Assembly (NCBI GenBank): GCA_028819305.1 | Contig: JAPPLY010000065.1 | Coordinates: 1 to 38,018, forward strand | Length of the DNA: 38,018 nt | Reading direction: 5' to 3' | Origin: Bdellovibrionales bacterium | GTDB taxonomy: Bacteria > Bdellovibrionota > Bdellovibrionia > Bdellovibrionales > UBA1609 | In this document: positions 2,882 to 29,278 of the stretch, piece by piece | How the letters are laid out: each line of letters starts with the position of its first letter | How positions within the stretch are numbered: the stretch's first letter is position 1 | Translations under genes and position numbers: made by a program | The notes under the pieces: generated by a model | What the model saw: the letters and a program-made list of their open reading frames with translations, nothing else | Databases searched by the model: none | Told to the model about the DNA's origin: nothing

Positions 2882-3379
2882 ACTTCCCTAGAAGGAAAAA
2901 AAAATTCAATAATGTGGATTTTCCTGTCCCACTAACTTCAAATAAAAAAAACTTTGCCGGGTTTTTATATTTTAAAATTCAAGATAACATCAAGAGGATC
3001 AAGTAAAAACTTCCTTATAAAATTACTAAAAAAGCAATAAAAGTTTGATAAAAACATAGTTTTATTAGTAAAATGCTTATTCTGATAGTTTTTTAAGGAC
3101 AAAAGTTATTTAAAATCAAAGCATAAATATATGAAAATCACGGATTACCAAATATAATGAAAGACATTTTTAATGTAACAGCACCTATTAGAAATAAAGT
3201 AGGATGCCATTGGAACGATATAGGACAACATTTTTCTGATCATCAAACCATGTCATTTTTAGAAAAAACAATTGAGTTTGGAAAAGTACTTATATGTAGT
3301 CAATGTGGAGGATTACCTAATAAGAAAAAAGCAGATTGTTGGAAATGTGATTGTGAAAAAGAAAGCCTTTATCCTCTTC

Positions 3380-5202
3380 TCAAATGGTTTAAAAATTGCG
3401 GAAAAACAAGAACAAGGGGGTTTTAAAGAAGAGGTGATAAAAGCTCAAATCAGGAAAACGATAGAAACCCATTTTGAAAAAGAAATTCAATTAAAGAACA
3501 CAGGAATAAAAGTTTTATCCCTCTTTTTTTTGGATCGTGTAGAAAATTATAGGATTTATAATGTAGGAGAGGTTTCTTTAGGAACTTACGGAAAATGGTT
3601 TGAGGAGATTTATAAAGAATTATCTGAAAAATATAAAAAAGAGCTAAATATTATACATGTTTCTAAAGTCCACAATGGATATTTTTCTCAAGATAGAAAA
3701 GGCCATTTTAAAAATACCAGAGGTAATACTAAAGAAGATATAAGCACCTATAATTTAATTATGAAAGAAAAAGAAAAACTACTTGATATTAACAATCCCC
3801 TAAAATTTATTTTTTCTCACTCTGCTTTAAGAGAAGGCTGGGATAACCCCAACATTTTTCAAATTTGCACATTGAATGAAATAGACTCTTCTATAAAAAA
3901 AGACAGGAAATTGGCAGAGGTTTGAGACTCCCTGTGAATCAAAATGGGGAAAGAGTGCAAGATGATTTGATTAACAATCTTGTGGTTGTAGCCAATGAAA
4001 GCTACGATGAGTTTGTAAATAGTTTGCAAAAAGAGTTTGAAGAGGAGTGTGGATTTACTTTTGGCGTTTTACCTCCTCATGCCTTTGTTGGAATAACTTT
4101 TGAGAAACAAGGTCAGGAATATAAAATCAAGCTAGAAGAATCCAAAGAAATATGTAATGAGCTTAAAAAATCCTCTTATTTATCTGAGGAGGGAATAATT
4201 AAAGAAAAATTTACAGAAGCTGTTCAAAGGAATGAATTTTCTATCTCTGAAAAATTTAACAATATCGTTGATAAAATTATTTGCACAGTGGAAGAATATC
4301 AAAAAGATCCTTATATTCGGAGGCATAAAACAAAAAAACGGGCAGGATTAAATAAAAAAACTTTCTTAGACCCTGAGTTTCAAAAGTTTTGGGAGGCTAT
4401 TTCCAAAAAAACATTTTATAACGTATGTTATGATTCAAAAGATTTAATAAAAAAAGCGGCAAAAGCAATCCATGATATGGAAACTGTGCCGGCAATTAAA
4501 ATTTCTATTTCTGATGTAGATATTGAGGTTGAAACCAAAGGTGTAACAGCTCATTTAACTAAAACACCAGAACATTTTTATCTTCTTGAAAGAAATAAAA
4601 TTCCTGATATTTTATCTTATATTCAAAATAAAATTCCCATTACTAAAAGAACAATTTTTGAAATTTTAGAGCAATCAGAGAGATTAAGTGATTTTATTTC
4701 TCATCCACAAAAATTTATGGATTTAGCTGTTAAAGAAATACAAACTGTTTTGAACCAATTAATAATTAAAGGCATTAAATATGAAAAACTGGACAAAGAA
4801 TCTTATGAAATGTCTCGGTTTAAAGAGGATGAGCATAAAATGGAGTTTATAGATGATAAAATTATTCCTACTAAAAAATCAATCTATGATTATATCTATT
4901 ATGAATCCACTCCTGAAAAAAGATTTGCTGAAGCTCTTGAAAATATGAAAAATATAAAATATTTTATTAAATTACCAAGCTGGTTCAAAGTCTCAACTCC
5001 CGTTGGAGAATATAATCCTGATTGGGCTATTCTCAAACAAAATGGAGATATTGTATATATGATAAGGGAAACAAAATCCTCTTTAGATAAATTAGGCTTG
5101 CGAGGTTTGGAAAGAAAAAAAATTCAATGTGGGAGAGCCCATTTTGAAAGCATCGGTGTTAATTACAAGGCTTGCACTTCTATTGAGAGCGCAGACTTAT
5201 AA
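3380..5202 (+). pseudogene. 3' part of type III restriction enzyme Res subunit (helicase C-terminal half + endonuclease domain), N-terminus missing and frame broken near 3901
   Basis: EEVIKAQIRKTIETHFEKEIQLKNTGIKVLSLFFLDRVENYR ... HSALREGWDNPNIFQICTLNE ... IGRGLRLPVNQNGERVQD ... DWAILKQNGDIVYMIRETKSSLDKLGLRGLERKKIQCGRAHFESIGVNYKACTS. Helicase motifs split between frames 3272..3925 and 3922..5202; 5' limit approximate. Confidence 0.8.
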
Positions 5203-5374: not shown

Positions 5375-6688
5375 ATGGTATACAAAAAACGCATTATTAA
5401 AGTTCCAGACAATAAGAACATCTTTTTATTTGGAGTAAGAGGAAGTGGTAAAACGGCCATGTTAAAACGGCTTTATCCCTCTGCTCTTTATATTGATTTG
5501 TTAGATGAATCTCGTTATCAAAATTACCTTTTTAATATAGGTTTATTTTATGAAAAGGTTAGTGCCTTTAGAGACGATGGTTTAGTTATTGTTGATGAAA
5601 TTCAAAGAATGCCTCAGCTTTTAAATGAAGTTCATCGTCTGATTGAATCTTCAAACCGTCGTTTTATTTTGACTGGTTCTAGTGCGAGAAAAATCAAAAC
5701 TCAAGGAGTGAATCTTTTAGGTGGGCGAGCTGGGACAAAATATCTTTATCCTTTTATACCTGAAGAATTAGGAGAGGACTTTAACTTAGAGCAAGCTTTA
5801 CGTTATGGCTTGCTTCCTATTATCTGGTCTTCCTATGATAGATCAGATAAATTAAAAGATTATGTTGGAACTTACCTTAAAGAAGAAATTAAAGCTGAAG
5901 CTTTAGTTAGACACTTGCCGAGCTTTGCCCGCTTTTTAGAAGTAGCAGGCTTATATCATGGGCAAATTGTTAATATCAGTGCTATCGCGAGAGAAGCTAA
6001 AATTGATAGACGATCAGTGAGAGAGTTCTTTTCTATTTTAGAAGATACAATGCTAGGCTTTTTTTTGTCGGCTTATTCCCCAAAACTAAGGTTGAGAGAG
6101 CAAAAAGGTAAAAAATTTTATTTTATTGATCCGGGGCTTGCTAGAACAGTTAAGAAAAATTTTGGTTCAATTTCTATTGAAGAAAAGGGATTTCTTTTTG
6201 AAGGCTTAGTTGCTCAAATTTTAAGGACCTGCGGAGAATACTATAATCTTTATGATGATATTTATTATTGGTCTTCTTTGGGATCTAAACAAACAGAAGT
6301 TGATTTTCTGTTAAAAAGAGGAAAAGAGTTAATAGCTATAGAAGTTAAAGCCAAAGCTGATGTTTCTTCTCGAGATTATAGAGGATTAAAAGCTATTGGA
6401 GAATTATCAAATGTAAAGAGGCGAATTGTCGTTTATATGGGGAAGTTTATAAGAAAAACAGAGCAAGGTTTTGAGATATGGCCTTTTGATTTTTTTTGTA
6501 AAAACTTAAAAGAGGATTTTGAATCTCCTGTTACTTATGAGGAAAAAAAATCTGTTCATGTGCCCTTTATAAAAGAAAGTATATTTTTAAAACCCTCAAT
6601 AATTGATCCTACTCAAAACAAGAAACAGTTGGAGGAGTATAAGGGACTTAATTGGTCAAAAAATAAAAAAGACAGAGGAGAGAATTAA
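5375..6688 (+). CDS. AAA family ATPase with C-terminal DUF4143 (PD-(D/E)XK-like) domain
   Basis: Walker A FGVRGSGKTAML, Walker B VIVDEIQRMPQLL, FILTGSSARKI, LLGGRAG, C-terminal KQTEVDFLLKRGKELIAIEVKAK; ATG at 5375 preferred over the upstream TTG at 5306. Confidence 0.85.
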   Translation: MVYKKRIIKVPDNKNIFLFGVRGSGKTAMLKRLYPSALYIDLLDESRYQNYLFNIGLFYEKVSAFRDDGLVIVDEIQRMPQLLNEVHRLIESSNRRFILTGSSARKIKTQGVNLLGGRAGTKYLYPFIPEELGEDFNLEQALRYGLLPIIWSSYDRSDKLKDYVGTYLKEEIKAEALVRHLPSFARFLEVAGLYHGQIVNISAIAREAKIDRRSVREFFSILEDTMLGFFLSAYSPKLRLREQKGKKFYFIDPGLARTVKKNFGSISIEEKGFLFEGLVAQILRTCGEYYNLYDDIYYWSSLGSKQTEVDFLLKRGKELIAIEVKAKADVSSRDYRGLKAIGELSNVKRRIVVYMGKFIRKTEQGFEIWPFDFFCKNLKEDFESPVTYEEKKSVHVPFIKESIFLKPSIIDPTQNKKQLEEYKGLNWSKNKKDRGEN

Positions 6689-6782: not shown

Positions 6783-9700
6783 ATGAAGGAAAATATAATT
6801 ATGTCTTTAAACCCATCAGATTTTCAAATTCCTCCACCTGAAAATGAAGAACAGTTTGAAAGCTTGTGTTTAGATTTATATAAGTCAGAGTTTGGAGATC
6901 AAACTCAAAGAAATGGAAGAAGAGGGCAGTCTCAAGATGGTGTGGATATTTTTGTACAAGATCAACAAATAGGTATTCAATGTAAAAAAAAAGATTTAAA
7001 TGATAAAATAAAAAAATCAGAATTAAAAGAAGAAGTAAAAAAAGCTAAAAATTTTAAACCCCCTTTAAAAAGGTATATTTTAGCAACCACTTGTAAAAGA
7101 GATGCAGAAATACAAAAAGTAGCTCGGTTAATTTCAGAAAATCATAAAAATCAAAATCTTTTTTCTATTGAAATTCATAGTTGGTATGAAATAAAAGAGT
7201 TTCTTGATAAACATTCTGAAGTTTATGAAAAATATTATCCTAGCTCTCAAAAAGCTCCTTCTATTAATTCAGCTATAATAAGTTCCATTCAAAGCGAAAG
7301 TCACCATCAAGAACTAAATAGAATAAGAGATTTAATAAATGAAGATAAACCTAAAGCAGCCCTTAAGTTATTGGAAAACTTTAAAAAAGAAAAGTGGAAT
7401 CAACTGGAGAATAAAGAAAAATATAAAGTTTTAACTAACATGGCTTGGGCAAAAATAAAAATGCGACAAGAGACGCAAGCTTCTGAGTTACTTATAGAAG
7501 CTTTACAATTTAACAAAGAAGATGAAAATGCTAATGAGAATTGTGCTTTGGCTTATCTAATTATTAACGATATAAAAAATACAAAAAAATATATAGAAAA
7601 AACAAAACAGCTTAATCCTTTAAACACAACAGCTTATACTCTTGAAGTTCAGATTAAAGATAAAGAAAATCAATCTTTAAATGATATTGTTTCTTCCATT
7701 CCACAGAATATAAGAACAAAACATCAAATTGCTCATATTCTGTCCCACATCAGCATAAAAAGAAAACAATACAAAGAAGCGGAAAAATGGCTCAACATTT
7801 TTTATGATATAATAGAACAAAAAAATGGAAACTGGAAAGATATAAATAGCGAAATAGCTTATGCGGATATGTCTTTAGGTCTTATTTTAGCAAAACAAGA
7901 CATTTTTTCAGGAAGGCATATACCAGACAATTTAAAAGATAAACTTGAAGAGATTATAAAAATCTATAAAAAACTGATTACAGATAGCCAATACAGCGAG
8001 TTAAAAGACTTTAATCCCAACTGGTATTTGCATTATGCTTTAGCTCTTGAGTTGAAAGGGAAGCTGAATGATGCGATTTGCATTCTTCAAGAGGGTATTC
8101 GTAAATTCTCATACGATGATCATCTAAAAATAGAACTTAGCCGGTTATTTACACGGAAAGGTGACATAACACAAAGTATTTCTATATTGGAAAAGTTAAT
8201 CGGTTTACAATCTTTAGAATCTAATGATTTTCCAGATTCTATGAGTAAAATATCGCTAACCTCAGACAAAATAGATATATCGGAAAAACTGTTTACTTTA
8301 GCTTTAATTCTGACTGATTTATATTTTCAAAATCAACAATCAGAAAAGGCTCAAAAACTACTAAATAAAATTAAGGAAGCACTGCCTATAAGTGAAGATG
8401 ACCGACTAGAGGTGAATCAATATTCAATATTTAGGCTTATTAATTTTGGAAAAATAGATAAAGCGGAAGAAATATTAAACCCCTTATTTGCAGAAGAGAG
8501 TAATAATATATTTAATCTCATCCTAAAGGCAAAAATAGAGGAAGCTAAAGAAAAAATTAGTGAAACAGAAAAAGAATCTGTAGATCATAAAAATAAAAAA
8601 ACTCAATATCTTAAAAGGGCTTATACTACCTTTAAAGATAAACAATATAATAATGATGAATTAAATCAAAATCACTCCTTTTTTAAGAAAAAAGAGCAAC
8701 TGAGAGATATTGAGCAACTTTCTAAAGAACTTTATTACTGTAAAATGTTTATAGAAGCAGAACCTCTGTTGGAGGAAATTACAAACAAAAACCTTAATCA
8801 TCCAGATATTTTTAAATTATTACATATCTATTTTGAAAATGGTAAGAACAAGTTAGCTATTGAACTGGCAGAAGATTTAATTAAGAAGTTTCCTGATAGA
8901 GTAGAACCGGCAAATATATTATTTCTTATTTATGAAAGCTTGGGGAATAAACAGAAAGCCATCCAATGTTATGAAAATTTCTTCAAGTCAAACCCCACGA
9001 ATGATCTTATAAGAATAGAGTTAGCTTATACATATACATATAGTGAACATGTTTCAAAAGCAAAAGAACTTTTAAAAAAGGATTTTAACTTAAATCCATT
9101 ATCCTCAGAACAAATGAGCAAACTTTCTCTCGCATATATGAAAACAGGGAATATTAAAAAAGCTTTAGAAACTCAATATCAGTGTATCAAAAAAAATCCT
9201 GGAAAAATGGAACCTCAAAGCGTATATTTTGAATTAATCACTTTTTTAAATCATCAAAATTTATATGAAATACACAACCAAGATAAATCTTCTAATATTC
9301 TTAATTCAGTGGAAACTAAATTAGATAAATCTTTTCTTCATCCAGAAAAATTAGATATAGATTGTTATGTCCAAATTAAAGATGCTGAGGATTTAGATGA
9401 AACAGACATTATCATAGAAGAAGATGCAGATATATACACTCCAGATCACGAATTATCAAAAGCTCTTTTAGGAAAGAAAAAAAAGGAAGTAGTTTTATTT
9501 CAGGACAAAAAGTATCAAATTATAAAAATTCAAAGTAAATATATTCGTAAATATCAAGAGATTATCAAAGAAACAGAAAATAGATACCCTTCAAAGCCTT
9601 TTGTTAAGTCTTTTTCAATTCCTCATAATGCTGATATAAAAGAACTTGCACACATTTTTAAGAAAGTGCAACCAAATATTTTAAAACAATATGAAACCTT

Positions 9701-10802
9701 AGATCAATTATTTGATTTTTATAATGAGGGTAAAGCAACTATTGGTTCTATAGCAAAAATACTCAGTAAGCATTCTATAGAAATAATTAGAGAGTTCATT
9801 ACCTCTAAAAAGTATAAGCTTATATCTGATGTTCCAGAATGGAGTGATTGTAGAAACACACAAGAAATTTTAGACAATAAGTCAAAAATTGTAATTGACA
9901 TTTCATCTTTAATCACGATTCATTGGCTAAAAATGGAGAAATACATTGAGAAAAGTAGCTTCAAAATTTATGTATGTCAATCTACTATAGACTCTTTAAA
10001 AGAGTATATAAAAGAAACAGCCTTGCACTCTAAAGACGGCTGTTTAACTGTGGGATTTGACAGAGAAGGCAGTCTTAGAAAAAGTTTTATTTCATCTGAA
10101 GTAATAAAGGAAAATTTAAACTTCTGGGTGAAGGTTAAATTATGGGTTGAAAATTATTGTTCAATAAAATTTTTATCGAAAGATAATATTTTAAGTAGAA
10201 AAGAGAAAATAGAAAAAGAAAATATTTTAGGAAAAGAATTTTTTGATTCGCTATTAGTTGTTGATAATAATTCTATATTTTTATGTGAAGATACTTTTTT
10301 AAGAAGATTTGCTAAACTTAAATATTCTATTTCAGGAATGAGATTATTTGATCTTATAGAATATTTTGAAAACAAAGTGATTATTGATAACAACCAGGCT
10401 GTTAAATTTAAGGCCAAGCTTGTCCAACTCAATCACACTTATATTCCTATTGATCATAACATATTGCTTTTTTTGTTAAAGGAATCTGAATATTCAGTTA
10501 ATGATATTGGTTTTCAAAGGGGATTGTTTTTTTTAGGCCCTATTTCCGATTTGTCAGGGGTTGTTAATATAGTGGCAAACTTTCTCATTGAAATTTGCCA
10601 AGTGCCATCCCTTTTACCCTACAGCAAACAAATAATCACGAAGAAATTATTGGATAAAGTTAGTTTAGGAAGAAATGAGAATCCAAAAACAATAGCTAAT
10701 CAAGTTTTTCATTTAGTTCAAATTAGAACAAAGCTTTTGCCGTTTCTTCAAAATGAAATACATGGATATATTATAGAGTGGCTAAAAGGTAAAATATACT
10801 AA
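6783..10802 (+). CDS. multidomain conflict-system protein: N-terminal PD-(D/E)XK (Mrr-like) nuclease, TPR array, GreA/GreB C-terminal-like domain, C-terminal PIN-like RNase domain
   Basis: N-term FESLCLDLYKSEFGDQTQRNGRRGQSQDGVDIFVQDQQIGIQCKKK (D...QxK motif); TPR-like helical repeats about 7270-9290; GreAB-C-like EEDADIYTPDHELSKALLGKKKKEVVLFQDKKYQIIKI at about 9410-9540; PIN-like KIVIDISSLITIHW ... FFDSLLVVDNNSIFLCEDTFLRRFAK. Confidence 0.75.
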   Translation: MKENIIMSLNPSDFQIPPPENEEQFESLCLDLYKSEFGDQTQRNGRRGQSQDGVDIFVQDQQIGIQCKKKDLNDKIKKSELKEEVKKAKNFKPPLKRYILATTCKRDAEIQKVARLISENHKNQNLFSIEIHSWYEIKEFLDKHSEVYEKYYPSSQKAPSINSAIISSIQSESHHQELNRIRDLINEDKPKAALKLLENFKKEKWNQLENKEKYKVLTNMAWAKIKMRQETQASELLIEALQFNKEDENANENCALAYLIINDIKNTKKYIEKTKQLNPLNTTAYTLEVQIKDKENQSLNDIVSSIPQNIRTKHQIAHILSHISIKRKQYKEAEKWLNIFYDIIEQKNGNWKDINSEIAYADMSLGLILAKQDIFSGRHIPDNLKDKLEEIIKIYKKLITDSQYSELKDFNPNWYLHYALALELKGKLNDAICILQEGIRKFSYDDHLKIELSRLFTRKGDITQSISILEKLIGLQSLESNDFPDSMSKISLTSDKIDISEKLFTLALILTDLYFQNQQSEKAQKLLNKIKEALPISEDDRLEVNQYSIFRLINFGKIDKAEEILNPLFAEESNNIFNLILKAKIEEAKEKISETEKESVDHKNKKTQYLKRAYTTFKDKQYNNDELNQNHSFFKKKEQLRDIEQLSKELYYCKMFIEAEPLLEEITNKNLNHPDIFKLLHIYFENGKNKLAIELAEDLIKKFPDRVEPANILFLIYESLGNKQKAIQCYENFFKSNPTNDLIRIELAYTYTYSEHVSKAKELLKKDFNLNPLSSEQMSKLSLAYMKTGNIKKALETQYQCIKKNPGKMEPQSVYFELITFLNHQNLYEIHNQDKSSNILNSVETKLDKSFLHPEKLDIDCYVQIKDAEDLDETDIIIEEDADIYTPDHELSKALLGKKKKEVVLFQDKKYQIIKIQSKYIRKYQEIIKETENRYPSKPFVKSFSIPHNADIKELAHIFKKVQPNILKQYETLDQLFDFYNEGKATIGSIAKILSKHSIEIIREFITSKKYKLISDVPEWSDCRNTQEILDNKSKIVIDISSLITIHWLKMEKYIEKSSFKIYVCQSTIDSLKEYIKETALHSKDGCLTVGFDREGSLRKSFISSEVIKENLNFWVKVKLWVENYCSIKFLSKDNILSRKEKIEKENILGKEFFDSLLVVDNNSIFLCEDTFLRRFAKLKYSISGMRLFDLIEYFENKVIIDNNQAVKFKAKLVQLNHTYIPIDHNILLFLLKESEYSVNDIGFQRGLFFLGPISDLSGVVNIVANFLIEICQVPSLLPYSKQIITKKLLDKVSLGRNENPKTIANQVFHLVQIRTKLLPFLQNEIHGYIIEWLKGKIY

Positions 10803-18218: not shown

Positions 18219-18620
18219 ATGCCCAAGGGGGTTTTGCGTGATAGTGGATTGATAAATTATTTATTAGATATAAAAAATAAGGATCAATTTTTAAGATCTC
18301 CAAAAGCAGGTTATATTTTTGAAGCTTTTGTTATTGAAGAGTTGCTCAAAGGTTTAAGTAGTAAGTTTCCTACAGGTCGCTGGGAGTATTCATACTATCG
18401 AACGCGAAACGGAGCAGAAATTGATCTCATCCTAGAAGGAAGCTTTGGTTTGCTTCCGGTGGAAATTAAGTTATCTACATCTGTAGAAAACCGAAGCCTT
18501 ATAGCACTAACACAGTTTCTTAAAGAGCATTCTCTCCCTTTTGGTGTTGTTATTAATCATTCTTCGGAAGTTAAAATGCTTTCGGAAAAAATTATACAAA
18601 TTCCGGTTTCTTTTATTTAG
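18219..18620 (+). pseudogene. 5'-truncated DUF4143 C-terminal fragment of an AAA ATPase
   Basis: MPKGVLRDSGLINYLLDIKNKDQFLRSPKAGYIFEAFVIEELLKG...WEYSYYRTRNGAEIDLILEGSFGLLPVEIKLS is the C-terminal half only; no Walker A/B ATPase domain upstream. Confidence 0.7.
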
Positions 18621-23501: not shown

Positions 23502-26500
23502 ATGAAGTATAGATATATTGTAATTACTTTGCTTTTTTTTATCCCTGTTTTAACTCATGCTGTAAGTGGGGAACGGGCTTCTTTTTCTGAAGAAGATAAA
23601 GGGGCCATGCGCCCAGATCAAATTACCTGGGATCATGTAGAAGAGCTACTTAACTTTATGAATTTGGAATTAACGGAAAAAGAAATTGTAAAAGAAAACA
23701 GATTACTTGAGGCTCGACAAAACGAGGACTATAGTATCCTTCAAAGACTGGATTCTATAAAACAGAGAACATATTCTGGGGTAGCTGGACATCAGCTTAA
23801 AGGTTTTGGTCCGGAGGCCGCTATTTTTTACGCAGCTATCGGTGGTAATATGGTAGTAGGGTCTTATATAAATTCCATAACGAAAGAAGGGAGATCAGAC
23901 CCTCGATGGATGGAAAACCTACTTTATGAAATGACATCACCGGTAGGTGTTTTTAGCTTTTTTTGTTTCGTGATGGCAAGTGGGCAAACCAATCTTCTTT
24001 ATTCCCGTCTGCTTTCTCCTGGATGGGATGTTCATTTTAAAAGAGGACCTTTTAAAGGCCGGCGAATAATAAAAACAAAGCCTTTGTTTTCACCTGGTAT
24101 ATTACAACCCCGTCTGGATCTCTTAAGAAGAAAAGCCACCTCCCAAAGGCTTTTGAAAGAGTATGGTGCATCTGGAACACCTCATACTAGTTTTCGCACC
24201 GCACTTAGATACCAAAAAGCAAGGTTCGGACCGAAGCTAGGTCTCTCCTTTGCCGGTCCCTTGGGGATGAGTGTTGGTATGCTGGCCTCTAATATAGTAC
24301 ATGAACTGGATTACATTCGGCTTTATAATCCTCATGTTGGCCCTTGTTGGGATAGCTTTACAGGTAAGGAAGGTGTAATAGATGAAGCAGATATGAAACT
24401 CCATTGTGATCTATTTTGGGATGGGATGGGTAGTACTATAGTGTCTTGGGCACCGGGTTTGGCCTCTCTAGTGACGGCTTCTGTTATTTCTCATGCGGCT
24501 GTGAATGCTGCTTACGGATTAGCAGGGAGAGCTATCGAAGGTGCTAAACATTTAAGAACTAGACCTTTTCAAATGAGTCAAAATATTTTAAACAATTGGG
24601 CCAAGCGAACCGGTGTTCGTGTTCCCTGGAAGATGCTAACTAGTGCGGCCTCTTTTATTCCCACTCCTGCCACTACGGGTGTTAAGGCTGGTGCTAAAGG
24701 ACTTGGACTCGGTATTGAAGCCATAGCTCAGTGGATAAAAGGATTCATCCTACCCCCTGGCACGCAAATAGTGAAAGGTAACAGGGTGAACAACAAGGGA
24801 TTTGGTTCTAGGTTCATAAACTTATTGGCTTTTATGTTAACGGATACATGGATCACTCATGATTTTTATAGTGCTATCTGGACAGAAACCATAAAAGCCG
24901 GTGATGTTTCGGATGGGATGAGAGATTTTATAACATATAGTAATGTGGACTCTAAAATCTGTGATAGGGATGATGACTGTGAATACCATGAGAGTATTTT
25001 TTCCGCCCATGAAACCGCTTTAACATTTGATCGCTGGAGACAGTTTAGGATGGAAAAGGCCGCAGCATCCTGGCAGAACTGGTTTAAATATGTTTCCAGT
25101 ACAACAGGTTCTTTTGAACAAATTTATTATTTATACTACCTGCTTTTTCAAGCTAAAAGGAATAAAAACAACTTCCATGATGTGAAATACTTTGGTGATC
25201 TTAGTGAAGAGGCTTTGTTTTCCAGTGATGTAGGCTATGCACCAAAAGAGGGTACAGCAAGGTCTTTTTTTGAGGGTATGATAAGTCAGATCAATGAACA
25301 TATTGGAAAAAGTAACATATCTAAGCCATCTAATGTAGCACTGGATGTGGTATCTGATTCTCCTTATCATTTTTTAAATCCGGAGATTAGTGTAAGTAGA
25401 AATGAGGGGGATCGTCCCTTTGTTTTAAGATCTCTTTTTAGTGTTGTAGATACTCGTGTTCCCTTAGAACCTTTTTATGGTGATCATTGGGGGGAAGCTC
25501 TAAGACAGGAAGAGGAGAAAATATATAAATACGAGAACCCGGATAGGATAATTAAGGAACATTTTGTTTATTTAGAGGAAATAACTAAAGATTACATGGG
25601 TACCCTTTTAGAAAAAAATTCTGAGACGAATGAGGATTATGAAGAAATCATAAGTGATTTGAAGAAATATTATACGAAAATATTGGAACCATCTATTGAC
25701 CTCTTGGAAAGGGAAATGAAAGGTGTGCCAATAAACTCTAATGGAGGAACAAAGCTCAATAATTATGTTGATGAAATCTTGAGTTTATATGCAGAACGCT
25801 TTAACCTGCTGGTAGAATCGCAACCAAATGATCTAGATGTCAATTTTTCTGCTTTTAATTTCCTTATTCATTGGTATTTTAATGATTGGCTTGAACAGCT
25901 CGCCTTGGAAAAAGATAAAATTCTTTCACAAGGGGTGCTAGTAGATGGAGCCGCCGTTGCAGAAAGAGTTGCAAATCGTTTAAGAAAAAAAATACTCTCG
26001 GCAGGGCTGGAGTATCTCAATAAAATTATAGAATGGGAGAAGAAAAAATATTCCGGCAGATATGTAAATTATATCTATTCAGATTTAAAGGACCAAATAA
26101 AAAACCTGCCTCCTGAGATGATAGGTGTTTATCAGAGACTAGGGACAGATAATATTTTCGCTCAACTATACGCAAGAACCTTTGTACCAAATAAAACAGC
26201 AAGTAAAGAAGACCATCCTGCTGAAAATAAAGCTCAAAAATACATTCAAATAAAACCCGAAGCTCCAGGTATGTTTACAGTAAAGACCGTAAACGCAGAT
26301 TATCGTTTGAGAGAGGATACATTTGATGTGAATTATCACCCCGATCGTTTGTTGGGACTTCGTACAAAAGGCTTTATGGATTTTGTAATAGCTTCTGCTG
26401 TTTGTGGCCCCGATCCAATGGAAATAGCAAAGCCAACAGAAGAGCAAATGAATGGGTTATTATCCAACAATGAGGATAAGTTTTTAAAGGAGCTTAAGGA

Positions 26501-27677
26501 GCTTATGGATTCTGTTCCTCTTTTTAGTTCTTTTATAGGTATGGACTGGATAGCGGGAAAAGGAGCTTCTTATGCTTTTTACCCCCCTCGTATTACGACC
26601 CTGGATGAAAAGACGAGAAAGGCTATATGTCGTGATTTGTATTCCCGTAGCGGTATAGTGAAGGATCTTTATAATGGGCATTTTCCGGTAGGAGACAGGG
26701 TCTATAACAACCTTTTACATCTAGTTTTGGACCATATCGGGTTTAAGGATGGAGAGACACAGGTGTCCTCTTTAGAAGATTTTGTTGAATGGTGGAATGA
26801 AAAAATCAGCCTCTATATGACATTCTTTCAGATAGCATCGGATCAGGAGTATAAGAGGATTGTTAAACATGATTTTATGGGGCCTCTTTTTATGAAAGAT
26901 ATAGAAGACACAACAATGACCAGTTATTTATTACAGACCGATTTTTCAAAACTAGATTTCTCAGGTTCATCTGAATGGGATAATATATCTCTATTATCTC
27001 ACGGCGGGTTTATAAAAAAAGGCCCGCGTATACATAATCACTATGACAGTCGTGTTGGTGTGGCTAGACCACGGAGGGTCTATAATGTGAGTTTGCCTAA
27101 AGGGGTATTTCAGAGTATGCACTTTGAGGCGCTCTATTGGTCGGATATGATATTGCATTTTGCCAGGAAGAAAGGTCTTTCCGATGAAAACAGGGGAAAA
27201 TTAAGAGGAGCCTTAAAACAATTTGCAGAAGAATTTAATATATCAGAAGAATGCTCTTTTTCAGAAGATGTATCATTATGGTCTGTTGAACAAATGGCCT
27301 GTCATATAAAATGGGCCAAGGGGTTTTTAAAAAACGGAGGAAAATTACAATACTTGAATAATTTATTGGAGGTGGATGTAAATAACGCTCTGGATATTTC
27401 TGTAGAACTGTTGATCGAGCGAGCTAATCCAGATGATCCTGACAATCAAACATTCTCTCTTTCCCAGGAGGAGCAGAAGGAACAACGAGAAAGGGCTATT
27501 AGTGCTTTTAAATGTGAGCCGGAAGCCGAGGGTTGTGATTTACCTCTTCAGCTTATCAATTTTTTTATTATCAGGCTCAATCAGATTTTAACAGAGGCTA
27601 CTACTTACGCGGATCAGGTGGGTTATATCTCTGAACATCCTGATGTTAAGGAAATAAATACACCATCGTTCCAGTGA
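23502..27677 (+). CDS. large (1391 aa) secreted/envelope hypothetical protein
   Basis: Single long ORF with N-terminal signal peptide MKYRYIVITLLFFIPVLTHAVSG and internal hydrophobic segments; SD-like agagaagagg before ATG; no recognised domain. Confidence 0.85.
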   Translation: MKYRYIVITLLFFIPVLTHAVSGERASFSEEDKGAMRPDQITWDHVEELLNFMNLELTEKEIVKENRLLEARQNEDYSILQRLDSIKQRTYSGVAGHQLKGFGPEAAIFYAAIGGNMVVGSYINSITKEGRSDPRWMENLLYEMTSPVGVFSFFCFVMASGQTNLLYSRLLSPGWDVHFKRGPFKGRRIIKTKPLFSPGILQPRLDLLRRKATSQRLLKEYGASGTPHTSFRTALRYQKARFGPKLGLSFAGPLGMSVGMLASNIVHELDYIRLYNPHVGPCWDSFTGKEGVIDEADMKLHCDLFWDGMGSTIVSWAPGLASLVTASVISHAAVNAAYGLAGRAIEGAKHLRTRPFQMSQNILNNWAKRTGVRVPWKMLTSAASFIPTPATTGVKAGAKGLGLGIEAIAQWIKGFILPPGTQIVKGNRVNNKGFGSRFINLLAFMLTDTWITHDFYSAIWTETIKAGDVSDGMRDFITYSNVDSKICDRDDDCEYHESIFSAHETALTFDRWRQFRMEKAAASWQNWFKYVSSTTGSFEQIYYLYYLLFQAKRNKNNFHDVKYFGDLSEEALFSSDVGYAPKEGTARSFFEGMISQINEHIGKSNISKPSNVALDVVSDSPYHFLNPEISVSRNEGDRPFVLRSLFSVVDTRVPLEPFYGDHWGEALRQEEEKIYKYENPDRIIKEHFVYLEEITKDYMGTLLEKNSETNEDYEEIISDLKKYYTKILEPSIDLLEREMKGVPINSNGGTKLNNYVDEILSLYAERFNLLVESQPNDLDVNFSAFNFLIHWYFNDWLEQLALEKDKILSQGVLVDGAAVAERVANRLRKKILSAGLEYLNKIIEWEKKKYSGRYVNYIYSDLKDQIKNLPPEMIGVYQRLGTDNIFAQLYARTFVPNKTASKEDHPAENKAQKYIQIKPEAPGMFTVKTVNADYRLREDTFDVNYHPDRLLGLRTKGFMDFVIASAVCGPDPMEIAKPTEEQMNGLLSNNEDKFLKELKELMDSVPLFSSFIGMDWIAGKGASYAFYPPRITTLDEKTRKAICRDLYSRSGIVKDLYNGHFPVGDRVYNNLLHLVLDHIGFKDGETQVSSLEDFVEWWNEKISLYMTFFQIASDQEYKRIVKHDFMGPLFMKDIEDTTMTSYLLQTDFSKLDFSGSSEWDNISLLSHGGFIKKGPRIHNHYDSRVGVARPRRVYNVSLPKGVFQSMHFEALYWSDMILHFARKKGLSDENRGKLRGALKQFAEEFNISEECSFSEDVSLWSVEQMACHIKWAKGFLKNGGKLQYLNNLLEVDVNNALDISVELLIERANPDDPDNQTFSLSQEEQKEQRERAISAFKCEPEAEGCDLPLQLINFFIIRLNQILTEATTYADQVGYISEHPDVKEINTPSFQ

Positions 27678-27733: not shown

Positions 27734-29278
27734 CTATGGGTATAAAACAGCCGTAATAAAAATATTCAAACGGGTATATTCTTTGATTTTTCCTTTGAAG
27801 GAAAGAACACGACCGGCCAAGGGTAAGCGAAAAATCTCTGCAGGAGCAGAATAAGCTCTTCCTGTCTGCCGACGAATGAGCTTGGAAAGTAGAAAGCTTT
27901 GCCCACTTTTCATTGTTATTGAAGAATGAATGCGACTGCTTTTAAGAGAAGGAGCAGAACGAGCGGAATAGGTATGATCCACTTCGGAAATATTCGCTTG
28001 CGTATCTACATATATATTGTGGTTTCTATCCGCTTTAGCTGTAAAATTCAACTGCACCCCATAAGATTTCCATTTAATACTTTGTGTTTCCCTCTCTGGA
28101 TGAAAGTGAGGAATAGGCACTTCTCCCCCGGAGTGGAAGTGAGATTTTTTACCACTCTCCATTAATAATGTAGCGGAAGAGAAAATACGTGCCTGACCTT
28201 TGTCTTCCATAGTTTTAAATGTAGATAGTAATTCCTTAAACAAATTTCCATCTAAAAGTCGTTTTACTACTTTCTCCCCCCAATCTATATGAGTTTGAAA
28301 AGAGTGGTTAGCACTGCTTTCTACAAGTAATAATTTCAATTCTATAAGCGGTGGAGAAGGGAGCAGGGTGGGGTCTTTTTTAATAAGGACACCAAAGCGT
28401 CTAAGGCGTGTTTTATATAGTTCCGCTAAAGATGGATCATTGGGAATAAGAAGGGTCAAAGGCTTATGCCATAACAAAACAGGGGAAGGTAAAGAAGAAG
28501 CTTTGTCCTCTTTTATTGTATTTTGAATATAAGTTTGTAATTTCTGCCGCAGGGATGTTTCTACCTCCGCTTCAAATAGATAATCCAAATTTTGCTCTTG
28601 CGCTATTTTTGAAAAATCTAAGAAATCTTTTATTCTATAGAGCCAGCCTCGGATGCGAATTTGACCAGCCACCATTTCTGCTTTTAAGCCCATACGGTTA
28701 GATAGAAAATCCCTTACAATAGTAAAATCATGTTTTTGTTCCGCACTTAATACATAAATAAGGTATAGGCGAGAGTCCAAATTCAGTAATACCTCTCCCT
28801 CTTTTCGAGCCTGAATATTTAAATAGGCCCCTGTGTCCCGAATAGAAACAACGCCCGATTGGCTTAACCATATTTGCTCAGAGGAGGAAATGGGAAGATT
28901 TTTGCTTTCTCCTTTTTCCATTAATAAAATATGTTTTTCTTTTACACTGCTCGCCGCAGGCACCTGTTCCGTTCCTGACTTGGTTTCCACGAATCCAGGC
29001 CTTTGTGAGATCCGGCTTTGCAAGGACAAGGTCCCCAACTGTGTAAGGACAGGATTTTCCAGATTGTCATTCCCGTGAAAACGGGAATCTAGCCCTTGCT
29101 TTTGCAAGAACAGGGGTTTTGGTCGTCTCTTTTTTTTTCTATAGGAGATGGTAGCTCCCGATGGTGCCACTTTTATCCCAGGCTGATGTACACCTTCCTG
29201 TTCATTCTCGGTTGCCGACAAAACACAGAAAGGATGCCAAAAAGAAAAAAAAAGGATAAACAGATAAGAATATTTCAT
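27734..29278 (-). CDS. secretin-domain protein (CpaC/RcpA-like, type II/IV pilus secretion outer-membrane channel)
   Basis: C-terminal secretin-like region SGGEVPIPHFHPERETQSIKWKSYGVQLNFTAKADRNHNIYVDTQANISEVDHTY...KSGQSFLLSKLIRRQTGRAYSAPAEIFRLPLAGRVLSFKGKIKEYTRLNIFITAVLYP; N-terminal MEKGESKNLPISSSEQIWLSQSGVVSIRDTGAYLNIQARKEGEVLLNL resembles the CpaC pilus N domain; signal peptide. Confidence 0.72.
   Translation of the reverse strand: MKYSYLFILFFSFWHPFCVLSATENEQEGVHQPGIKVAPSGATISYRKKKRRPKPLFLQKQGLDSRFHGNDNLENPVLTQLGTLSLQSRISQRPGFVETKSGTEQVPAASSVKEKHILLMEKGESKNLPISSSEQIWLSQSGVVSIRDTGAYLNIQARKEGEVLLNLDSRLYLIYVLSAEQKHDFTIVRDFLSNRMGLKAEMVAGQIRIRGWLYRIKDFLDFSKIAQEQNLDYLFEAEVETSLRQKLQTYIQNTIKEDKASSLPSPVLLWHKPLTLLIPNDPSLAELYKTRLRRFGVLIKKDPTLLPSPPLIELKLLLVESSANHSFQTHIDWGEKVVKRLLDGNLFKELLSTFKTMEDKGQARIFSSATLLMESGKKSHFHSGGEVPIPHFHPERETQSIKWKSYGVQLNFTAKADRNHNIYVDTQANISEVDHTYSARSAPSLKSSRIHSSITMKSGQSFLLSKLIRRQTGRAYSAPAEIFRLPLAGRVLSFKGKIKEYTRLNIFITAVLYP
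29064..29090. repeat. GC palindrome inserted in frame inside the secretin gene
   Basis: ttgtcattcccgtgaaaacgggaatctagc; translated as GLDSRFHGNDN in the minus-strand CDS. Confidence 0.8.

What the first reader, a model, noticed from the sequence alone, without database searches (positions are those of the whole stretch)
6783..10802. 1339-aa PD-(D/E)XK + TPR + GreAB-C + PIN protein: a candidate RNA polymerase-associated nuclease defence effector
The protein joins a predicted DNA nuclease (GVDIF...IQCKKK) to a long TPR scaffold, a domain resembling the GreA/GreB C-terminal domain (ADIYTPDHELSKALLGKKKKEVVLFQDKKYQIIKI vs Gre IVG..EAD....IS..SPLG.ALLGK.VGD...), and a PIN-like RNase. TPR-GreAB-C-PIN proteins have been predicted computationally as conflict systems. 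The N-terminal restriction-type nuclease would add DNA cleavage to RNA cleavage in one chain, possibly targeting transcription complexes on foreign DNA. It lies in an island with restriction remnants.
Basis: partly seen in the sequence, partly recalled or inferred. Interest (0 to 1): 0.72.

Follow-up and report, generated by a model that had tools for sequence, protein, structure and literature searches.

The report
Two-nuclease RNA-polymerase-docking defence protein
The gene encodes an intact large protein that joins a DNA-cutting domain, a repeat scaffold, a domain related to transcription factors GreA/GreB and an RNA-cutting domain; this is a member of a bacterial defence family already predicted in print, here sitting directly behind an ATPase gene that travels with it in three genera.

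Summary
Window 6783-10802 is one intact ORF (likely real start 6801, 1333 aa). It has an Mrr-type PD-(D/E)XK domain, TPRs, a GreA/GreB C-terminal domain and a PIN domain (Pfam PF20698, 'PIN-TPR-GreABC'). Each part was tested by profile comparison. The Gre-like segment's closest solved structures are E. coli GreB, GreA and Gfh1. The PIN acids and the REase D...QxK motif are conserved across homologues. I found REase-bearing members in alpha- and betaproteobacterial plasmids, some near Gabija, Shedu or CBASS genes. One detail is not in that paper's account. In three genera of this family, a same-strand AAA_14/DUF4143 ATPase with a PD-(D/E)XK-like motif lies directly upstream, in different surroundings. 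The paired ATPases carry a ~45-residue C-terminal tail that four close unpaired ATPases lack. That suggests, but does not show, a two-gene system. RNA polymerase binding, nuclease activity and phage defence are unproven. AlphaFold was run without an alignment and was uninformative.

The parts
6801..10802 (+). REase-TPR-GreA/B-C-PIN protein; ORF from 6783, likely start 6801
   Evidence: Intact ORF; PF20698 over cut-off; start by AAGGA and alignment with homologues
6822..7232 (+). Mrr-type PD-(D/E)XK domain, residues 14-150; D55, Q66, K68
   Evidence: Mrr_cat PF04471 E 3.6e-5, 24.3 bits over cut-off 21; 10 of 15 homologues match; D and QC(K/R) conserved in all 16 REase-bearing proteins aligned
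7320..9272 (+). TPR scaffold, about residues 180-830
   Evidence: PF14559, PF13428, PF07719 and PF13181 over cut-off
9333..9572 (+). GreA/GreB C-terminal-like domain, residues 851-930
   Evidence: hhalign P 2.4e-15 vs GreA C-termini; homologue profile vs GreB E 4.9e-7; PF01272 in 16 of 21 homologues, sub-threshold in the window copy itself
9891..10316 (+). PIN domain, residues 1037-1178; acids D1039, D1070, D1155, D1170
   Evidence: PF20698 47.8 bits; D1039 and D1155 in 23 of 23, D1170 in 22 (E in 1), D1070 in 20 (N 2, E 1)
5376..6688 (+). AAA_14/DUF4143 ATPase with PD-(D/E)XK-like motif, candidate partner gene; ORF from 5306, likely start 5376
   Evidence: PF13173 and PF13635; same gene directly upstream of the homologues in two other genera
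6545..6688 (+). C-terminal tail of that ATPase, found only in the paired copies
   Evidence: Alignment of three paired and four unpaired close relatives
3272..5202 (+). Remnant of a type III restriction (res) gene: N-terminus missing, frameshift at about 3922
   Evidence: PADLOC REase_III model positions 368-543 and 548-970 in two frames

Best explanation
It is a member of the TPR-GreA/B-C-PIN conflict family with a restriction-type nuclease at the N-terminus. The most likely working model is this. The Gre-like domain, without the catalytic Gre coiled coil, docks the protein near the secondary channel of RNA polymerase, or on a similar surface. The PIN domain cuts the transcript of an invader. 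The Mrr-type nuclease cuts DNA, either the invader's or, as a last resort, the cell's own. The TPR superhelix spaces the two nucleases and senses the trigger. In this bacterial family an adjacent AAA_14/DUF4143 ATPase may help to control it. Shown here: domain content, conserved catalytic residues, defence-rich surroundings of several relatives, and the ATPase adjacency. Inferred: RNA polymerase docking, substrates, order of events and phage defence.
For: PF20698 over cut-off; Gre-C homology; Mrr_cat over cut-off in the window copy; active-site conservation in 23 homologues; published definition and docking model. Relatives lie beside an ATP-dependent endonuclease with a UvrD helicase (Gabija-like), Shedu, AAA ATPase with helicase, and CBASS. 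The ATPase pair recurs in three genera. The gene is patchy: 8 of 370 genomes of the phylum, absent from both congeners.
Against: No experiment on this architecture was found. In the alignment the loop matching the E. coli GreB D121-S122-P123 loop (which I recall, without a test here, as part of the RNA polymerase contact) reads D-H-E in the window copy and varies among homologues, so RNA polymerase docking may not be kept. Structure prediction gave no usable model.
Confidence: 0.6

Rival explanations
1. The Gre-like (FKBP-fold) domain is a general protein-recognition module that reads an invader protein or a phage RNA polymerase, not host RNA polymerase; PIN and REase are then ordinary abortive-infection effectors.
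For: The loop residues at the position of GreB 121-123 vary strongly among homologues; the constant core evolves fast (one search says so too; 11-26% identity of the window copy to distant members in this domain).
Against: The homologue profile is specifically closest to GreB, GreA and Gfh1, with a trigger factor only at E 0.32.
Confidence: 0.25
2. The pair is a two-gene system: the AAA_14/DUF4143 ATPase is an obligate regulator or loader whose tail docks on the TPR protein.
For: Directly upstream on the same strand in all three cases of this family where the upstream side is visible, with otherwise different flanks; tail in 3 of 3 paired and 0 of 4 unpaired close relatives.
Against: The ATPase family is abundant (13 matches in this genome), close relatives stand alone, the three cases are related, more distant family members lack it (L012, L017; plasmid loci), and Kaur et al. 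call the systems mostly standalone.
Confidence: 0.3
3. A decaying or silent gene in a degraded island, with no present function.
For: The neighbouring type III res gene is a broken remnant, and 18219-18620 is a DUF4143 fragment.
Against: The 4-kb ORF is intact and all nuclease residues are kept; homologues in other genera at 63% identity, about as conserved as LeuRS (62%), are intact too.
Confidence: 0.07

Closest known systems
TPR-GreA/B-C-PIN conflict systems (Kaur et al. 2021, eLife 10:e70394; Pfam PF20698)
   Same: Same constant core (TPR, Gre-C, PIN), and REase is one of the N-terminal effectors they list
   Different: They describe mostly standalone genes; here an AAA_14/DUF4143 ATPase is directly upstream in three genera
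GapS6b (NCBIfam NF047936, named as an anti-phage family)
   Same: Weak collinear profile similarity of some plasmid homologues in TPR (model 388-581) and PIN (773-891)
   Different: Far below the 850-bit cut-off; no match of the window protein itself; the primary paper was not available here
GreA/GreB/Gfh1 transcription factors
   Same: C-terminal FKBP-like domain
   Different: No Gre N-terminal coiled coil with the catalytic acids is detected; the window copy alone is sub-threshold for PF01272 (15.0 vs 26.9 bits)
Mrr-type restriction endonucleases (PF04471)
   Same: D...QxK catalytic motif, Mrr_cat over cut-off
   Different: Fused to TPR-GreC-PIN; methylation dependence not tested

Membership tests
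TPR-GreA/B-C-PIN conflict system | PIN domain of the PF20698 type | tested here: met
   47.8 bits, cut-off 27.8
TPR-GreA/B-C-PIN conflict system | GreA/B C-terminal domain before the PIN | tested here: met
   hhalign P 2.4e-15 with negative controls; GreB top PDB match of the homologue profile
TPR-GreA/B-C-PIN conflict system | TPR repeats | tested here: met
   Several TPR models over cut-off
TPR-GreA/B-C-PIN conflict system | Interchangeable N-terminal effector | tested here: met
   Mrr_cat here; phosphorylase domain PF01048 in the Nostoc member; no Mrr motif in the Salipiger and Pseudohalocynthiibacter members
TPR-GreA/B-C-PIN conflict system | Mostly standalone gene | tested here: inconclusive
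   ATPase directly upstream in three of three assessable cases of this bacterial family, none in the others
TPR-GreA/B-C-PIN conflict system | Binds RNA polymerase, cuts RNA, blocks invaders | not testable with these tools
   Prediction only, in the paper too
GapS6b | NF047936 over its curated cut-off | tested here: not met
   No match of P0001; best relative 31.8 bits against 850
Gre transcript-cleavage factor | N-terminal coiled coil with catalytic acids | tested here: not met
   No Gre N-terminal model among Pfam matches; TPRs lie before the Gre-C domain
Mrr-type PD-(D/E)XK nuclease | Mrr_cat domain with D...QxK | tested here: met
   24.3 bits, cut-off 21; motif conserved

The most novel reading that the evidence does not exclude
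A dedicated AAA_14/DUF4143 ATPase, itself carrying a PD-(D/E)XK-like motif, forms a two-gene system with the REase-TPR-GreC-PIN protein through a partner-specific C-terminal tail, so that an ATPase switch controls a polymerase-docked RNase/DNase.
Probability: 0.28. Interest if true: 0.6.

Novelty: new member of a known kind. Interest (0 to 1): 0.35.

Why it matters
If the published model is right, this family couples host RNA polymerase to destruction of the transcript and DNA it is handling, a defence logic not yet shown by experiment as far as I could find. The window supplies an intact example in which both nuclease active sites are kept and there is a candidate partner gene, which makes the polymerase-docking idea and the role of the ATPase directly testable.

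Tried and rejected
Searches of the genome-contig collection failed with machine errors and the cap was then counted as used, so homologues came from the 370 held genomes of the phylum and from plasmids. Phage records: only an N-terminal stretch similar to the REase in one Salmonella record, none of the core. AlphaFold without an alignment gave pLDDT 40 (Gre-C) and 50 (REase); the REase model's helix-strand order fits alpha-beta-beta-beta-alpha-beta, but its Foldseek search gave no match below E 0.1, so I do not use it. Rows from the genome search and plasmid loci were not sent to the structure tool because its rule does not name them. Profile searches of the REase and PIN alignments against PDB sequences gave no significant match. 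The paper that I recall as the source of GapS6 is not held.

Full report
WHAT IS THERE. The ORF 6783-10802 (+) is intact. Translation probably starts at 6801: AAGGA precedes that ATG, and the close homologues align from the same MS(L/W) methionine. In the full-length scan Pfam reports TPRs and PF20698, 'PIN-TPR-GreABC', over its cut-off.

REase. Scanned on its own, residues 14-150 match Mrr_cat over the curated cut-off (24.3 vs 21 bits), and 10 of 15 homologues match at E < 0.05. D55 and Q66-C-K68 are kept in all 16 REase-bearing proteins of the alignment (K is R in two). The whole-protein scan misses this domain in the window copy, so the test on the segment mattered.

Gre-like domain. Residues 851-925 of 23 homologues, compared as a profile with GreA C-termini from the same genomes, give P = 2.4e-15; the other 76-residue stretches of the same proteins give P > 0.25, except the one that overlaps it (a smaller first test is). 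The 21-row profile finds E. coli GreB (4.9e-7), GreA (1.2e-5) and Gfh1 forms as the best six PDB sequences. PF01272 matches 16 of 21 members, best 2.5e-8; the window copy alone is weak (E 0.024). In the GreB alignment D121-S122-P123 faces D-H-E in the window copy, and this loop varies in the family, so polymerase docking is plausible but not shown.

PIN. Two of the four acids are invariant in 23 homologues (D1039, D1155), the other two nearly so.

KNOWN OR NEW. Kaur et al. 2021 (PMC8195603, section 7) define exactly this: a constant TPR-GreA/B-C-PIN core with one of 13 interchangeable N-terminal effectors, REase and HNH among them, predicted to act on RNA polymerase hijacked by viruses, the PIN cutting the transcript and the N-terminal effector as back-up. 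The window protein is a new member, not a new kind.

DISTRIBUTION. PF20698 occurs in 8 of 370 held genomes of the phylum and once in this genome. The two held congeners lack it, while two other genera of the family carry it at 63% identity, about as conserved as LeuRS at 62%; this patchiness fits transfer or repeated loss. In the congeners LeuRS is preceded by other genes than here, so the left side of LeuRS differs in this genome. Plasmids of alpha- and betaproteobacteria and of Nostoc carry the family. Neighbours include an ATP-dependent endonuclease with UvrD helicase, Shedu genes, an AAA ATPase with helicase and a RES/Xre pair, and CBASS. In G256 the locus lies a few kb from CBASS cyclase, E2 and phospholipase genes.

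THE ATPASE. Directly upstream, same strand, lies an AAA_14/DUF4143 gene with the sequence EVDF...AIEVKAK, a PD-(D/E)XK-like motif. The homologues in G256 and G233 have its 71%-identical counterpart in the same place, while the rest of the surroundings differ. A fourth (G235) is cut off by its contig end. Gaps from ATPase stop to the likely start are about 112, 57 and 29 bases (from the coordinates). The three paired ATPases end in a ~45-residue tail that four close unpaired relatives (70-80% identical) lack; one of those four ends 72 bases before its contig does, so its downstream neighbour is unseen. With 13 matches in a genome of roughly 1,900 genes (my estimate), one chance adjacency is about 0.7%; but the three cases are related, and 3-of-3 against 0-of-4 is only p = 0.03 by Fisher's test if they are counted as independent. 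More distant members lack the ATPase. I therefore rate a two-gene system at about 0.3.

GapS6b. The NCBIfam anti-phage family GapS6b shows weak similarity to some plasmid homologues in TPR and PIN, in the same order and with a gap of about 190 positions where Gre-C would sit. This is a lead only: the scores are far below the cut-off and I could not read the source paper.

LIMITS.

Noticed in passing
5376-6688; L013 4122-5438; L014 8831-10147: Paired AAA_14/DUF4143 ATPases carry a C-terminal tail missing from close unpaired relatives (L065-L068).
   Followed up: partly
G000, G235, G236: AAA_14/DUF4143 ATPases are strongly multiplied in this bacterial family: 13, 14 and 24 matches in single small genomes.
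   Followed up: no
18219-18620: A DUF4143 C-terminal fragment without its ATPase part, probably a remnant.
   Followed up: no
3272-5202: Type III restriction gene remnant, truncated and frameshifted.
   Followed up: partly
23502-27677: Intact 1391-aa ORF with no match in Pfam or PADLOC, next to a secretin gene on the other strand (27734-29278).
   Followed up: no
L080 2414-3133 and the like position in L079: In several rhizobial plasmids a helix-turn-helix gene and a small gene (239 aa in L080, weak Abi_2 / HEPN_Swt1) lie directly upstream of the TPR-GreC-PIN gene, another possible conserved neighbourhood.
   Followed up: no
L072 3989-7111, L071 3983-7054: The same REase domain (about 40% identity) heads 1020-1040-aa proteins with a weak nSTAND NTPase match on enterobacterial and Janthinobacterium plasmids, so it is a shared effector cassette.
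   Followed up: partly
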